Assembly: GCA_945889495.1 (NCBI GenBank)
Contig: CAMDBU010000002.1
Span: 17,984 to 81,983, forward strand
From: Syntrophobacter sp. SbD2
GTDB taxonomy: Bacteria > Desulfobacterota > Binatia > UBA9968
Length of the DNA: 64,000 nucleotides
Direction of reading: 5' to 3'
Shown one piece after another: positions 23,873-29,654 of the stretch. Position numbers and translations under genes: made by a program. The notes under the pieces are model-generated. The model did no database searches, was not told where the DNA came from, and saw only the letters and a list, made by a program, of their open reading frames with translations. Every line of letters begins with the position of its first letter. The first letter of the stretch is position 1.

Positions 23873-25021
23873 ATGAAAGAGTTAGCGAAGATTCGTAACG
23901 ATGTAGTCGGCAGTTTACTGCGGCCGGCGGCGCTCAAAGCGGCGCGGCAGCAGTACGATGAAGGTAAGTTGACGCTGGAGCAGTTGCGCGCGCTCGAAGA
24001 TCGCGCGATTCGCGACGCGGTCAAGTTGCAAGAAGATTTGGGTCTATCCGTGGTCACTGACGGCGAATACCGCCGGCTCAACTTTCAAGACAGCTTCGGC
24101 GAATCGGTGACCGGCTACGACGCCGGTAAGCCGAGTCTGGAGCTGTACGAAAAGCGCGTCGAGGGCAGCAGCCCCGGACAGCGCTGGGAAATCCCCGACC
24201 AGGGCGAGCAGAAGGGCACGGCGGTGGCGCAGCGCCGGCCGGTGCTCACCAAGCTCGGCCTGGCGCGCAACGTGCCGGCGGAAGAGTTTCGCTTCTTAAA
24301 ACAGGTCGCCGCCAAGCCCGGCAAGGTCGCCTTGATCGGCCCGGACCGAATCTCCCAGCGCTTCGACTGGCAAAAATCCACCGCGGTTTATTCTGGACTC
24401 GACGAGTTCGTTAACGATGTCGTGAAAGTCGAGCGCGAAATTATTGCTGGACTCGTGCAAGCCGGTTGCCGCTATGTGCAGATCGACGCGCCGGGCTACA
24501 CCGCCTACGTCGACAAGCCGTCGCTCGACGCCATGCGCGCGCGTGGCGAAGATCCCAAGGAGAATTTCAGCCGCTCGCTCAAAGCCGACAACGCCGTGCT
24601 CGCCGGCTTCGACGATATCACTTTCGGAATACACCTGTGCCGCGGCAACCAGCGCAGCATGTGGCATCGCGAAGGCAGCTACGACGAGATCGCCGAACGG
24701 CTGCTCAACGAACTCAATCACGACCGTTTTCTCTTCGAATACGACACGCCGCGCGCCGGCGGCTTCGAGCCGCTGCGCTTTTTGCCCAAGGGCAAAGTCA
24801 TCGTGCTCGGACTGGTCAGCACCAAGGTCACCGAGATGGAAACCGTCGACGGTCTCAAACGACGCATCGACGAAGCGGCCAAATACGCGCCGCTCGATCA
24901 AATCGCCATCAGCCCGCAGTGCGGATTCTCTTCTGATGTAGTCGGCAATCTGATCAGCGACGACGATCAAAAGCGCAAGCTCGAAATCGTTGTTGAGACC
25001 GCGCGGCAGGTTTGGGGTTAG
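23873..25021 (+). CDS. cobalamin-independent methionine synthase-like (MetE C-terminal domain) protein
   Basis: RNDVVGSLLRP, VVTDGEYRR, VQIDAPGY, GIHLCRGN, SPQCGFSS: His/Cys/Cys zinc-ligand pattern of the MetE family. Confidence 0.88.
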   Translation: MKELAKIRNDVVGSLLRPAALKAARQQYDEGKLTLEQLRALEDRAIRDAVKLQEDLGLSVVTDGEYRRLNFQDSFGESVTGYDAGKPSLELYEKRVEGSSPGQRWEIPDQGEQKGTAVAQRRPVLTKLGLARNVPAEEFRFLKQVAAKPGKVALIGPDRISQRFDWQKSTAVYSGLDEFVNDVVKVEREIIAGLVQAGCRYVQIDAPGYTAYVDKPSLDAMRARGEDPKENFSRSLKADNAVLAGFDDITFGIHLCRGNQRSMWHREGSYDEIAERLLNELNHDRFLFEYDTPRAGGFEPLRFLPKGKVIVLGLVSTKVTEMETVDGLKRRIDEAAKYAPLDQIAISPQCGFSSDVVGNLISDDDQKRKLEIVVETARQVWG

Positions 25022-25190
25022 GCCTCGTCGGGCGAGGCATGGCGGATTTCAAATTTCAGATTCCATATTTCACGGATTGAACGGTTGGTGGCGGCGGCGC
25101 CGGGATCGGCGAAGCGAGAACTGTTGATCGAGAGGCGAGGATAGTTAATACGCAGTCCTGACCTACACCTCAATGCGCTTGGGTGAGAAT

Positions 25191-27191
25191 CTAACGCTTG
25201 TGCAGCCCAAGTTTCTCGAATAGCATTCGGTTTCGACGCTTGGCATCTCCCACCAATTTGTCGTACGAAATAATCTCGACGTATCCGTTGCCTTCCGGGA
25301 GTGTGACAAAGAATCCTTCGTTATCAGCGGTCCTGTGATATCGCATAGAGACCTGTTTCCGAAGACTCGGCATGAGATCGGCGATCAGATAACCTGTATA
25401 GCGCAAGTGCGCCGGGTTGACCGGCCTGCCATCGATATCCGTAACGTCGCCTTGGTCGATTTCAACGAACCGTTGAATGATCTGGTCAGCCGGATCCTTA
25501 TCATAGTCGTCGCGGCCTGGACGTTTGAATTCGACTATGACTACGCCGCCGCCTGGAAGGTTGTTCGGTTCCGCTACGCCGATCGGTGTGTCATAGAAGA
25601 AAGCCAAGATGTCCGGCTCCTTACCGGATGTCGCCTCCAGCCCCACTACCTTGTTTAGCTTCTTGTCCGATACCAGGAGCGTATGAAAACACAGCCGCTC
25701 GTCGATCAGCCACAGGTTCTGCTGGTCGAGGAAGACATCCTTGGATGACACTCCCATCGGGAAAATCATTTTGTGCAGCACCTTCTCGAAAGGATATTTA
25801 GAGTCGGCCTGGACGCGCTTGAGACTTTGGTCGATTAAATCGAGAATTGTGCGCCTATGAGCAACGTAATCGGCTAGCTTGGCCTTGCCGACATCGTTCA
25901 TCTGCTCCATCAACGTCTTGATACGTTCCTGGTACTGGTCAAAAGACTCCTTTTCAATCAGCGCGGCGACATGCCTTTCCTCCTTACGCATGCCGTCTTC
26001 TATCTCACGGCGGATGTGGAGAAGGGCCTCGTCGAGTTGTTCGTCCTTGAGACCCGGCTGAACCCGTTGTTCTAGAAGTGACCGATATCTCTCATTAGTC
26101 AGCACTCTGTATTCAGGAGCCTGTTCGACGAAGCGCTCGACCTGCGCAATCTTCTCCTCGTTAGTGGTTTTCAGATCGGCGGTAAGGACGCTTCGGAGCG
26201 CATCCGCGAGCGCTTTATTGAAATCCCGTCGAGACACCAACGATGCCTCCAACTCAGGCTCGTCCTCCGACTGGAAAGCAATCTGCGTACGTTCCTGGTT
26301 CGCGTTGGCGTCAAGATACTCTCCGGTTATGAGGACAATAAGCGTGTATGCCTCTTGGTTTTCGTCTACAAGACGATCTGGCAACTCGGGTAGCATATCC
26401 CTCAATTTTGCGGCCGTAACCTCACGACCGTTCGCGCACAGATGATAATCGTGCCGTGCGCGCCCATCCCTGTGGCGGTACGCTTGCAACGCAAAGACAT
26501 GTCCAACCACATCGAAGAACTTCTCTTCGATGTGCGGCTGGACCGAAGATTGGAAGAGAGACTTGAGGTCGACAGAGGCGTGTCCTGGATATTCGAGCGA
26601 GATCGGGGGACACAATCTTGCGGCAAAGCGAATTAGGAAATGGGCAATGATACGCTTGGCCAGGATTTCAGGATCCAAAGGCCATGCCCCGCGGTAGCGA
26701 TCAGTAAGTCCCCGCACGGTCAGAGTTGTCCCTGTGGGGGCATCGCTCAGCTTGGTCACGTCGGCCCCATGAAGTTCCTTCGCTATTGAAAATCCGAAAT
26801 TCCGAGAAAAATGCTTGCCATCCTTCTCAAAAACGCTGCACACCTCACAAGTCGCAAACACCTTAAGAAAAGTGAATCGTCCGACTCCCTTTCCGCCGAC
26901 CTTAACCTTAGACAAAGTATAGGCTTCCCCGAACGATGCCGTATTACTGTCAGTGAATCCGACCCCGTCATCGGAGATTTCAAACCCGTCGATCGATGCC
27001 GCTTGATCTCCGGCTCGGCTGAAGAGATCGTCCGAACCCAGCAGACGGATACGAATGGAACCGCCTGCGGAATTTCCGTGTTTTTCCTCTATGGCGTCCA
27101 TCGAGTTCGAGATCGCCTCGAATAACGGCATTACACCTCGAGATGGCGTCAGTTCGAGACGATCAACTAATCCACGTATATTTGTAAGCAT
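25191..27191 (-). CDS. GHKL (HSP90/MORC-like) ATPase fused to a C-terminal PD-(D/E)XK-like nuclease domain
   Basis: Bergerat motifs EAISNSMDAI (N box), ISDDGVGF (G1), GGKGVGRF (G2), PTGTTLTV; S5-like HDYHLCANGREV; coiled-coil linker; C-terminal EPDILAFF...GGGVVIVEFKRPGRDD...DQIIQRFVEI. Confidence 0.82.
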   Translation of the reverse strand: MLTNIRGLVDRLELTPSRGVMPLFEAISNSMDAIEEKHGNSAGGSIRIRLLGSDDLFSRAGDQAASIDGFEISDDGVGFTDSNTASFGEAYTLSKVKVGGKGVGRFTFLKVFATCEVCSVFEKDGKHFSRNFGFSIAKELHGADVTKLSDAPTGTTLTVRGLTDRYRGAWPLDPEILAKRIIAHFLIRFAARLCPPISLEYPGHASVDLKSLFQSSVQPHIEEKFFDVVGHVFALQAYRHRDGRARHDYHLCANGREVTAAKLRDMLPELPDRLVDENQEAYTLIVLITGEYLDANANQERTQIAFQSEDEPELEASLVSRRDFNKALADALRSVLTADLKTTNEEKIAQVERFVEQAPEYRVLTNERYRSLLEQRVQPGLKDEQLDEALLHIRREIEDGMRKEERHVAALIEKESFDQYQERIKTLMEQMNDVGKAKLADYVAHRRTILDLIDQSLKRVQADSKYPFEKVLHKMIFPMGVSSKDVFLDQQNLWLIDERLCFHTLLVSDKKLNKVVGLEATSGKEPDILAFFYDTPIGVAEPNNLPGGGVVIVEFKRPGRDDYDKDPADQIIQRFVEIDQGDVTDIDGRPVNPAHLRYTGYLIADLMPSLRKQVSMRYHRTADNEGFFVTLPEGNGYVEIISYDKLVGDAKRRNRMLFEKLGLHKR

Positions 27192-27265
27192 GGGGCCATG
27201 TACCTTTTTGCGAGCAGCCTAATCATTGAGGGTCGTGCCTTGCCTTTTGACCGTTGGTGACCGCC

Positions 27266-27709
27266 CTAGATCGTTCCCGGAATCACAACCTCAATGTCAT
27301 TGTTGAGAGCGGTAAAATCACGGCCGTTGAAGGTTAACACGGTCGTGGCTTTGCCTTGCTCGGCGCAGGCGCCGATTACCGCGTCGTAGGTTCGTCCACC
27401 GGCCACGCTGTTTTTTGACGCGGGTCGCAATAAAGTTTCGTACGATTTTGCGTTGAGCGCGATGATCTTTGCTATCTTAAGGAAGTTATTTCCCAGCAGT
27501 GTCATCGCGGTTTGCGGTGACACACGATGTGGCGGCGGAAGGCGGGTAAGAACCGCATACGCCTCAACCAATGCCGGAGCCGCGACGATCATTTTGGCTC
27601 GTCCGGCGAGCCGCGTCTGGATTTCGTTTGCGGCGGCCTCATGATGTTCATGCCATGAGCAGACGGCCGCGATCATGCAGCTGGTATCCGGCAGAAATGC
27701 GGGCGGCAT
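27266..27709 (-). CDS. VapC-like PIN-domain toxin
   Basis: MPPAFLPDTSCMIAAVCSWHEHHEAA...GGRTYDAVIGACAEQGKATTVLTFNGRDF. Confidence 0.85.
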   Translation of the reverse strand: MPPAFLPDTSCMIAAVCSWHEHHEAAANEIQTRLAGRAKMIVAAPALVEAYAVLTRLPPPHRVSPQTAMTLLGNNFLKIAKIIALNAKSYETLLRPASKNSVAGGRTYDAVIGACAEQGKATTVLTFNGRDFTALNNDIEVVIPGTI

Positions 27710-27712
27710 TGT

Positions 27713-27979
27713 TTAGCCGGAAGCGCCTGAGCGTTCTTTGCGGAGCGCTTTACGAGTCCGCTCGACCGTCGCCGTCGAAAGACGCGGAGCATCTTTAGTG
27801 GGAACGGCCACTAATAATCGCCCCTTCCTTTCGAGTTTGACCGCTAATGGAGCCGGCGTAATGGCGATGGCACCCTTTTCCCAACGGACCTCAAGCGGCA
27901 TTCCCGGCTTGATCCCAGAGTCGCGACGAACATGTTTGGGAATCACCAACCGTCCGGCGTGATCGATGGTTGTTTTCAT
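27713..27979 (-). CDS. VapB-like AbrB/SpoVT-family antitoxin
   Basis: MKTTIDHAGRLVIPKHVRRDSGIKPGMPLEVRWEKGAIAI; the ORF track extends it further upstream to 28243. Confidence 0.85.
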   Translation of the reverse strand: MKTTIDHAGRLVIPKHVRRDSGIKPGMPLEVRWEKGAIAITPAPLAVKLERKGRLLVAVPTKDAPRLSTATVERTRKALRKERSGASG

Positions 27980-28316
27980 GGGAGAGAAATTACCATTTGC
28001 TTGGCTGCCTGCCAAGACAGCAAAGCGACCGGCCGCGCGCCGATTTGACACGACCCAAGACAAGGTTGACTTATCCCATCTGCTCCATCGCCGACTTCTT
28101 AAACTCCGTTCGCATTTTCGACTGCAATGGGTACAGTGGGGCCAGCTCATCCGCCCCCTAACTTTCCTGCCGAGTCGGCCAATGCGGGGTGGAGTGATTG
28201 AATCTTGCGCCACGTCACTTGGCGGTGAAGCGATAGTCGGCATACCTAATCTAACGAGTTGACTAGAAAACTAAACCGCAGATAATAGATGCCAGTTCAG
28301 ATAGGGTAGAAAAACG

Positions 28317-28607
28317 ATGAAAACCGCCACGGTGCTAAAACTCAAAGCCGCGCTCGGCGATTATCTAAAATCGGTCAAGGCGGGCGAGGAAGTTACCATC
28401 ACCGAGCGCGGCCGGCCCATCGCTAAACTCACTCCGGCAAAAAATCACCAAGTCTCCAGTGATCGCTTGGCGGCGATGGAAAAACGCGGTCTGATCAAGC
28501 TCGGCTCGGGCAAGTTGCCGAAGGGGTTTTGGAAACTGCCGCGGCCCAAAGATCCTAAGGGCTTGGTTGCCAAGACTGTAATTCAAGAACGGGAACAAGG
28601 CTGGTGA
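28317..28607 (+). CDS. Phd/YefM-family antitoxin
   Basis: VLKLKAALGDYLKSVKAGEEVTITERGRPIAKLTP. Confidence 0.9.
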   Translation: MKTATVLKLKAALGDYLKSVKAGEEVTITERGRPIAKLTPAKNHQVSSDRLAAMEKRGLIKLGSGKLPKGFWKLPRPKDPKGLVAKTVIQEREQGW

Positions 28608-29038
28608 AGTTCTGGGACACCTCTGCAATCGTCCCGCTCTGCGTTGCTGAGCCCGCTTCGGCAACCGTCAAATCAATTCTCAGCCAGGATTCCTCGATCG
28701 TAGTTTGGTGGGGAACCCGAACCGAGTGTATTTCGGCCCTCATGCGTCAGCGCCGTGAAGGAGGCTTGTCCTTGCAAAGTGAACGACAGGCGCGTCACTT
28801 ATTGCGGCTGCTTGCGGATAGCTGGAGCGAAGTCCAGCCGAGCGATTTACTGCGGGCCACAGCGGACGGTCTCCTGGCGGCCCATTCACTGCGAGCCGCT
28901 GACGCTTTCCAGCTCGCGGCCGCGTTGCAGTGGTGTCAAAGGCGCACGACGGACAAAGAGTTGGCAACGTTCGATATTCGTATGCGCGAGGTGGCGCGGA
29001 ACGAGGGGTTCACCATCCTGCCGGTCAAAATACGCTGA
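28604..29038 (+). CDS. VapC-like PIN-domain toxin (GTG start, GTGA overlap with the antitoxin)
   Basis: MKFWDTSAIVPLCVAEPAS...LRAADAFQLAAALQWCQRRTTDKELATFDIRMREVARNEGF. Confidence 0.9.
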   Translation: MKFWDTSAIVPLCVAEPASATVKSILSQDSSIVVWWGTRTECISALMRQRREGGLSLQSERQARHLLRLLADSWSEVQPSDLLRATADGLLAAHSLRAADAFQLAAALQWCQRRTTDKELATFDIRMREVARNEGFTILPVKIR

Positions 29039-29117
29039 TCGAAAATTCCCAGCATTGCAGCGATTCTCTCTCGCTCGGAATCTTGCCGCCCCACAACATC
29101 TATGATACCTCACAGCC

Positions 29118-29654
29118 ATGAGTGACGATATCACCAGCATCCGCAACGCGATCCGCGACATTCCGGATTTCCCCAAGCCGGGAATTATTTTTAAAGACAT
29201 TATGCCATTACTCAGCAACGGGCCGTTGTTTGGCAAGACCATCGACTTGATCGCTGAGCGTTACCGCGGCCAGAAGATCGATACCGTGTTGGGCATCGAA
29301 TCGCGCGGGTTTATTTTTGGCTCGGCGCTGGCCTACAAGCTGGGCGCGGGGTTTAGCGTGGTGCGCAAGCCGGGCAAGCTGCCCTACGATACCCATAGCG
29401 CGAGCTACGAACTGGAGTACGGCAAGGATACCTTGGAGATCCATGTCGATGCGGTCGCGCCTAACTCGCGGGTGGTGATCGCCGACGACTTGATCGCTAC
29501 CGGCGGCACCGCGGCGGCGACTGCTGAGCTGGTGTCGAAACTCGGCGCCACGGTGGTCGAATGCGCTTTCGTGATCGAACTGAGCTTCCTCAACGGCCGC
29601 GCGAAGCTTGTCCCGCACAAAGTCTTTTCAGTCCTCCAGTACGACTCCGAGTAG
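29118..29654 (+). CDS. apt: adenine phosphoribosyltransferase
   Basis: [21 protein letters not shown]...[31 protein letters not shown]...[13 protein letters not shown]. Confidence 0.97.

What the first reader, a model, noticed from the sequence alone, without database searches (positions are those of the whole stretch)
25191..27191. GHKL/MORC-like ATPase fused to a PD-(D/E)XK-like nuclease: candidate single-gene defence protein
A complete Bergerat ATP-binding fold is visible (EAISNSMDAI, DDGVGF, GGKGVGRF, GTTL), followed by an S5-like segment (YHLCANGREV), a long charged coiled-coil linker and a C-terminal module with EPDILAFF...VVIVEFKRPGRDD...DQIIQRF. This matches the D...ExK layout of PD-(D/E)XK nucleases with a downstream Gln helix. 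ATP-gated dimer clamp plus nuclease is a sensible architecture for foreign-DNA sensing. MORC/HSP90-like GHKL proteins are known in bacterial conflict and restriction loci, but I cannot assign this one to a named defence system.
Basis: partly seen in the sequence, partly recalled or inferred. Interest (0 to 1): 0.72.

Follow-up and report, generated by a model that had tools for sequence, protein, structure and literature searches.

The report
Mobile ATPase-nuclease phage-defence gene, Shedu-like
This is a real, intact single-gene antiviral enzyme (an ATP-driven clamp fused to a DNA-cutting domain) that reached this bacterium by gene transfer; it belongs to a known family of which one member in cholera bacteria has already been shown to stop phages, so it is a new member rather than a new kind.

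Summary
ORF 25191-27191 (minus strand, 666 aa) is intact and under strong purifying selection. It has full-length homologues in >550 genome contigs, 56 plasmids and one phage. Across 89 aligned homologues the GHKL residues (E25, N29, D74xGxG, G99, GR105), the S5-domain basic residues (R256, R301) and a C-terminal E469-D527-E554xK556 site are invariant.

It is a paraMORC3 protein (Iyer 2008), apparently the family of VcSduA, shown in 2025 to be a one-gene anti-phage system needing its ATPase glutamate (E27) and nuclease lysine (K557). Profile-profile comparison ties the C-terminus to the Shedu SduA_C nuclease (95-97%) and not to McrC (0.4%); Pfam alone misses it. It lacks the MORC signature.

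The gene sits in a 4.05-kb insert, with two PIN toxin-antitoxin pairs, between core genes that are adjacent in three congeners. It is 82% identical to a Rhodocyclaceae copy while PheT is 37%, so it was transferred. Relatives sit among R-M, Shedu, Kiwa and transposon genes; some are embedded inside type I R-M operons.

Likely function: ATP-gated DNA-clamp nuclease against phage DNA; trigger unknown. New member of a known kind.

The parts
25191..27191 (-). paraMORC3 / VcSduA-like gene, 666 aa: GHKL ATPase + S5 + helical region + Shedu-type nuclease
26706..27134 (-). GHKL (Bergerat) ATP-binding domain, about residues 20-162: E25, N29, D74xGxG, GGKGVGR (99-105), GTT (154-156)
   Evidence: motif residues invariant or nearly so in 89 homologues; Foldseek to Hsp90, SMCHD1, GyrB ATPase modules E 5e-12 to 2e-10; Pfam HATPase_c E 0.0023
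26292..26603 (-). S5/transducer-like segment, about residues 197-300, with invariant R256 and (just after it) R301
   Evidence: AF2 secondary structure, invariants, profile match to the MLH1 transducer at residues 216-314, E 0.025
25824..26258 (-). long helical region, about residues 312-456
   Evidence: AF2 model helices 321-357, 359-376, 383-411, 417-456
25212..25787 (-). C-terminal nuclease domain, about residues 469-660; E469-D527-E554xK556, Q570
   Evidence: invariant E-D-ExK; hhalign to SduA_C set 95-97%, McrC control 0.4%; AF2 pLDDT 86
25071..29116 (.). about 4.05-kb insert absent at this site in three congeners
   Evidence: metE-like gene and apt adjacent in G001, G002, G003; homology to G001/G003 stops at 25070-25071 and resumes at 29117-29123
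27713..27979 (-). AbrB/MazE-type antitoxin (likely start 27979; the longest ORF starts at 28243)
   Evidence: NCBIfam lp_hng_hel_AbrB E 4.4e-9; sequence read
27266..27709 (-). PIN-domain (VapC-like) toxin, 74 nt upstream of the ATPase-nuclease gene and on the same strand
   Evidence: Pfam PIN E 2.9e-11
28317..28607 (+). Phd/YefM-type antitoxin
   Evidence: Pfam PhdYeFM_antitox E 4.8e-7; NCBIfam phd_fam E 1.6e-10
28604..29038 (+). second PIN-domain toxin
   Evidence: Pfam PIN E 1.3e-7
23873..25021 (+). left flank: cobalamin-independent methionine-synthase-like gene (core)
   Evidence: Pfam Meth_synt_2; 78-81% DNA identity in three congeners
29118..29654 (+). right flank: adenine phosphoribosyltransferase-like gene (core)
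   Evidence: Pfam Pribosyltran; conserved next to the left flank in congeners

Best explanation
The ORF is a horizontally acquired, self-contained anti-phage restriction protein of the paraMORC3 / VcSduA type. Likely working: two copies dimerise through ATP-bound GHKL heads (inferred from the GHL family), closing a clamp formed by the S5 and helical middle region around phage DNA or a DNA intermediate. Clamp closure or ATP turnover licenses the C-terminal Shedu-type PD-(D/E)XK domain (E469-D527-E554xK556) to nick or cut that DNA, without killing the host. Shown: domain make-up, invariant catalytic residues, selection, transfer, insertion between core genes, defence-rich contexts of relatives; and, by others for VcSduA, that the ATPase E and nuclease K are both needed for defence. 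Inferred: that this copy is active, the dimer clamp, the DNA target and the trigger.
For: Motifs invariant in 89 homologues. AF2 model pLDDT 85.6; N-terminal module matches Hsp90/SMCHD1/GyrB ATPase modules, Foldseek E from 5e-12. C-terminus matches SduA_C by hhalign 95-97%, P 4e-8 to 3e-10, with McrC 0.4% and the protein's own N-terminus 0.2% as controls; 3 of 71 members hit Pfam SduA_C, best E 0.0014. VcSduA: GHKL + DUF4263, E27A and K557A abolish defence, protection at all MOIs, likened to paraMORC3 by its authors (PMC12137116); the family member from Vibrio lentus has the invariant E at 27 and the invariant K at 557, and the E-to-K spacing in the family is 518-540 with VcSduA at 530 and the window protein at 531. 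Transfer: 82/76/65% identity to Rhodocyclaceae/Dechloromonas/Azotobacter copies against 37-38% for PheT; only one other of 60 genomes searched has a homologue, at 33%. Empty site in three congeners. Defence and mobile contexts: type I R-M genes within 5 ORFs in 16 of 88 loci, SduA, KwaB, SNF2/ResIII, TniB/TniQ, AbiE, SIR2, SAVED and others.
Against: No activity shown for this protein. The VcSduA sequence itself could not be fetched, so homology to it rests on residue numbering, architecture and the authors' paraMORC3 label. The Pfam SduA_C model does not hit the window protein and PADLOC does not hit any member as Shedu. Fold search of the isolated C-terminal model gives only marginal hits (McrC E 0.038, NucC 0.053) and no Shedu entry among the 50 best. 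The insert also holds two toxin-antitoxin pairs, so defence is not the only possible reason for its spread.
Confidence: 0.86

Rival explanations
1. It is part of a multi-gene unit: the AbrB-PIN pair directly upstream on the same strand is its partner (for example restraining it or acting as a co-effector), so the system is three genes, not one.
For: Same strand, 74 nt between the PIN stop and the ATPase start, no terminator-like site between them on that strand. PIN or VapC genes lie near some other copies (Ti plasmid, Sphingomonas and Sinorhizobium plasmids).
Against: The closest relatives L011, L012 and L013 have no PIN pair recognised next to the gene, and DNA similarity to L011 and L013 stops at the gene's ends. 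No PIN family is among the recurrent neighbour clusters. VcSduA works alone.
Confidence: 0.1
2. It is the accessory, stand-by component of a restriction-modification system, as PrrC is, watching or assisting an R-M enzyme; the window copy works with R-M genes elsewhere in its genome.
For: In other genomes the gene lies inside or at the end of type I R-M operons in at least three layouts, including between hsdS and hsdR. The window's genome has three HsdR N-domain matches on other contigs. Iyer et al. allowed for action with unlinked R-M systems.
Against: No R-M gene in the insert. Most loci (72 of 88) have no type I R-M gene within five ORFs. VcSduA protects in E. coli and Vibrio as a single gene.
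Confidence: 0.12
3. It is a cellular DNA repair or chromosome-maintenance protein (MutL/topoisomerase/Hsp90-like) rather than a defence protein.
For: The ATPase module resembles Hsp90, SMCHD1, GyrB and MLH1/PMS2.
Against: Very patchy distribution (2 of 60 genomes including its own), cross-lineage transfer, insertion between core genes, plasmid and phage carriage, defence and mobile neighbours.
Confidence: 0.04

Closest known systems
VcSduA of Vibrio cholerae VSP-II(WASA) (PMC12137116; called Shedu type I-D)
   Same: Single gene, N-terminal GHKL, C-terminal PD-(D/E)XK nuclease of SduA_C/DUF4263 kind; essential E27 and K557 correspond to E25 and K556 here; E-to-K spacing 530 against 531.
   Different: The window protein lies on a separate deep branch (with Rhodocyclaceae, Dechloromonas and Azotobacter copies; about 32-33% identity to Vibrio homologues), in a non-Vibrio host, next to toxin-antitoxin pairs and not next to GrwAB. 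Direct alignment to VcSduA was not possible.
paraMORC3 family (Iyer, Abhiman and Aravind 2008, PMC2292703)
   Same: GHKL + S5 + extra C-terminal domain with E-D-ExK; sporadic, laterally mobile; proteobacteria and Bacteroidetes.
   Different: The 2008 paper reports a nuclease-bearing subset as stand-alone genes without conserved neighbourhoods; here 16 of 88 loci lie within five ORFs of type I R-M genes, in recurrent orders.
Classical Shedu SduA (PDB 8ti8/8ti9/8tia; EcSduA reviewed in PMC12904381)
   Same: Homologous nuclease core by profile comparison; an N-terminal clamp thought to decide the DNA substrate.
   Different: Classical sensors are not GHKL ATPases; EcSduA is a tetramer that senses DNA ends, while VcSduA is modelled as a dimer (tetramer not well supported).
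MORC proper / SMCHD1 / Hsp90
   Same: ATPase module fold.
   Different: No MORC signature motif; carries a nuclease; no chaperone or chromatin-reader domains found.
PrrC embedded in type Ic R-M loci (from general knowledge)
   Same: Accessory defence gene embedded in hsd operons (seen in relatives, not in the window).
   Different: PrrC is an ABC-ATPase anticodon nuclease, unrelated in sequence; a guard role for paraMORC3 is untested.

Membership tests
paraMORC3 | N-terminal GHKL domain with intact motifs | tested here: met
   E25, N29, D74, G76, G78, G99, G104 and R105 invariant in 89; fold match to GHL ATPases
paraMORC3 | S5 domain following the GHKL domain, with conserved basic residue | tested here: met
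   AF2 secondary structure; R256 and R301 invariant
paraMORC3 | Additional C-terminal RE-fold domain with E-D-ExK | tested here: met
   E469, D527, E554, K556 invariant in 89; SduA_C homology
MORC proper | GhXhhpXXRhl motif in the S5 domain (PMC2292703) | tested here: not met
   The position eight before R256 is D in the window protein and mostly R/Q/K/E/S in the family, not G
VcSduA-type (Shedu type I-D as used in PMC12137116) | GHKL + SduA_C-like nuclease in one protein with catalytic E near residue 27 and K near 557 | tested here: met
   E25/K556 here, E27/K557 in V. lentus L048
VcSduA-type (Shedu type I-D as used in PMC12137116) | Sequence homology to VcSduA itself | not testable with these tools
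   VcSduA sequence not in the collections reached
VcSduA-type (Shedu type I-D as used in PMC12137116) | Anti-phage activity dependent on both active sites | not testable with these tools
   needs plaque assays
Shedu (SduA_C / DUF4263, PF14082) | Pfam SduA_C match over the curated cut-off | tested here: not met
   No hit for the window protein; 3 of 71 members hit, best E 0.0014; no genome-wide hit in G000. Hence filed as paraMORC3 with a divergent SduA_C-homologous nuclease, not as a Pfam-defined Shedu
Shedu (SduA_C / DUF4263, PF14082) | Homology of the nuclease core to SduA | tested here: met
   hhalign 95.0-96.8% with D, ExK, Q and ITyDeL-like motif aligned; McrC control 0.4%
Shedu (SduA_C / DUF4263, PF14082) | Solved Shedu structure as nearest fold of the nuclease domain | tested here: inconclusive
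   Top hits McrC and NucC, E 0.04-0.05; Shedu not in the 50 rows shown

The most novel reading that the evidence does not exclude
In several lineages paraMORC3/VcSduA proteins are not just neighbours but working parts of type I R-M loci (hsdM-hsdS-paraMORC3-hsdR and hsdR-AAA-hsdM-hsdS-[SduA]-paraMORC3). They would act as an ATP-gated nuclease deployed when restriction is inhibited or when it leaves cut DNA, as PrrC does with a different chemistry; stand-alone copies such as the window's would be the unlinked form of the same guard.
Probability: 0.17. Interest if true: 0.58.

Novelty: new member of a known kind. Interest (0 to 1): 0.33.

Why it matters
It extends an experimentally supported but little-studied type of immune nuclease (GHKL clamp + Shedu core) to a deep, separately transferred branch, and shows that current detectors (PADLOC 2023 models, Pfam SduA_C) miss it. 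The recurrent embedding in type I R-M operons makes a concrete, testable question of whether these nucleases back up restriction enzymes.

Tried and rejected
Pfam, NCBIfam, PADLOC and PDB sequence searches with the single protein gave only a weak HATPase_c match and chance hits; the Plasmodium P45/48 and apolipoprotein matches are treated as chance or low-complexity. McrC was considered as the nuclease's nearest relative after the fold search and rejected by profile comparison (0.4%). MORC proper was rejected on its signature motif. E. coli carriage was tested by sensitive blastn with two gammaproteobacterial homologues: none (this does not exclude very divergent copies). Repeats or target-site duplications at the insert ends: none of 8 bases or more found. 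Viral-contig scans failed three times for a machine reason. The Shedu structure paper (PMC11805627) is not held.

Full report
OBSERVATION. All quoted motifs are present. A tblastn search found 56 plasmid records, 50 of them covering at least 80% of the protein, and one phage. In an 89-sequence alignment the following are invariant: E25, N29, D74, G76, G78, G99, G104, R105 (GHKL motifs), R256, R301, and in the C-terminus E469, H473, W494, D497, R499, D527, E554, K556, P558; Q570 is kept in 88 of 89. Against the closest relative, codon positions 1/2/3 are 84/92/44% identical, so the gene has been kept as a protein.

FOLD. AlphaFold2 with 71 homologues gave mean pLDDT 85.6. Foldseek matches the N-terminal module to Hsp90, SMCHD1 and GyrB ATPase modules (E from 5e-12 to 2e-10, probability 1.0). 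A profile search also touches the MLH1 transducer segment. So GHKL + S5 is supported. The isolated C-terminal domain (residues 455-666) is modelled at pLDDT 86, but its best PDB matches are only marginal: McrC E 0.038 and NucC 0.053, both RE-fold nucleases. Sequence profiles are clearer. The family C-terminus aligns with a set of SduA_C (Shedu) nuclease domains at 95.0-96.8% probability (P 4e-8 to 3e-10), lining up the PD, ExK, Q and I(I/T)(S/T)(Y/F)D-L elements; the same region against McrC scores 0.4%, and the N-terminal half against SduA 0.2%. Pfam's SduA_C model on its own misses the window protein and hits 3 of 71 members, best E 0.0014.

IDENTITY. Iyer et al. 2008 (PMC2292703) described paraMORC3: GHKL + S5 + a C-terminal RE-fold domain with E-D-ExK, sporadic and laterally mobile, partly as stand-alone genes. 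All three features are met here. The MORC-proper signature (GhXhhpXXRhl) is not met. A 2025 study (PMC12137116) showed that VcSduA, a single gene with a GHKL ATPase and a DUF4263 PD-(D/E)XK nuclease, likened to paraMORC3 and placed in Shedu type I-D by its authors, protects E. coli against Drexlerviridae and V. cholerae against phage X29. E27A and K557A abolish activity, and cultures are protected at all MOIs tested, which suggests direct restriction rather than suicide. I could not fetch VcSduA itself. The V. lentus member of the present family has its invariant glutamate at 27 and invariant lysine at 557; the spacing across the family is 518-540 (VcSduA 530, window 531). Shared ancestry with VcSduA is therefore very likely but not directly aligned.

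HOW IT GOT THERE. In three congeneric genomes the metE-like gene and apt are neighbours, with matched segments 70-167 bp apart. In this genome a 4.05-kb segment lies between them (homology to two of the congeners stops at 25070-25071 and resumes at 29117-29123). The insert holds the ATPase-nuclease and an AbrB-PIN pair on the minus strand, and a Phd-PIN pair on the plus strand. G+C is 54.4% for the insert and 52.7% for the gene, against 58.0% for the window; no flanking repeats were found. The nearest proteins are from Rhodocyclaceae (82%), Dechloromonas (76%) and Azotobacter (65%), while PheT of the same genomes is 37-38% identical and a congener's PheT is 62%. Only one other of 60 genomes searched has a homologue, at 33%. 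In a tree the window and these three form a separate deep clade with 100% SH-aLRT support. This is cross-lineage transfer. It is not very recent: third codon positions are only 44% identical.

CONTEXT OF RELATIVES. The 82% relative sits next to TniB and TniQ transposition genes. The Azotobacter copy lies between KwaB (Kiwa) with an SNF2 helicase on one side and an N6/N4 methylase with a ResIII helicase on the other. The Dechloromonas copy is near an Eco57I-type methylase gene and IS21-like genes (IS21 assigned by similarity to annotated istA/istB in L006). Plasmid copies neighbour AbiE, SIR2, XamI R-M, SAVED, type I R-M, Shedu and others. In 16 of 88 loci a type I R-M gene lies within five ORFs. 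Recurrent orders are hsdR-AAA-hsdM-hsdS-(SduA)-paraMORC3 in several gammaproteobacterial families, hsdM-hsdS-paraMORC3-(AlbA)-hsdR in Desulfobulbaceae, Planctomycetota and another MAG, and hsdM-hsdS-paraMORC3-x-x-hsdR in Flavobacteriaceae. No matched control for the expected frequency was run; conserved order in distant lineages is the stronger argument. The 2008 paper described a nuclease-bearing subset as lacking conserved neighbourhoods, so this adds to it.

MECHANISM. Shown here: architecture, invariant sites, selection, transfer, context. Shown elsewhere for the apparently homologous VcSduA: need for both active sites, and protection without culture collapse. Inferred: ATP-driven head dimerisation closing a clamp around DNA and licensing the Shedu-type nuclease. 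Classical EcSduA senses DNA ends as a tetramer (reviewed in PMC12904381); with a GHKL head and a dimer model for VcSduA, the present protein may sense topology or a replication intermediate instead. That is open.

VERDICT. Observation confirmed, interpretation supported and sharpened: a new member, on a distinct branch, of a known and recently tested kind. Interest is modest for the window copy itself; the most interesting lead is the repeated embedding of the family in type I R-M operons.

Noticed in passing
L007, L058, L075, L077, L081, L082, L122; L047, L067, L090; L022, L056: The family gene lies at the end of, or inside (between hsdS and hsdR), type I R-M operons in at least three layouts from distant phyla; in L007, L072 and L077 a classical SduA gene lies directly before it.
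   Followed up: partly
L107:76-2028: A second, different GHKL + SduA_C fusion (about 650 aa) found by Pfam SduA_C (E 5e-5) but not detected by the window family's profile; GHKL-Shedu fusions may have arisen more than once or split very early.
   Followed up: partly
L003:2485-4509 (phage vB_RanS_PJN03, ON245412.1): A temperate-looking phage carries a divergent copy (24%) beside its integrase, annotated as N-acetylmuramoyl-L-alanine amidase, apparently a misannotation; possibly a superinfection-exclusion gene.
   Followed up: no
L010 (Agrobacterium Ti plasmid NC_002377.1) and other Agrobacterium plasmids: A divergent copy (about 26%) lies near repABC in a defence-like cluster (PIN, TIR, trypsin-like, ABC three-component genes).
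   Followed up: no
window 27266-29038: Two PIN toxin-antitoxin pairs (AbrB-PIN on minus, Phd-PIN on plus) lie back to back in the same insert; the AbrB antitoxin probably starts at 27979, not at the ORF's first start 28243.
   Followed up: partly
L008:10007-11188 and L006:11266-12480: DUF3800 protein directly or nearly downstream of two plasmid copies.
   Followed up: no
window 23873-25021: The metE-like flanking gene has several diverged paralogues in this genome and its congeners.
   Followed up: no
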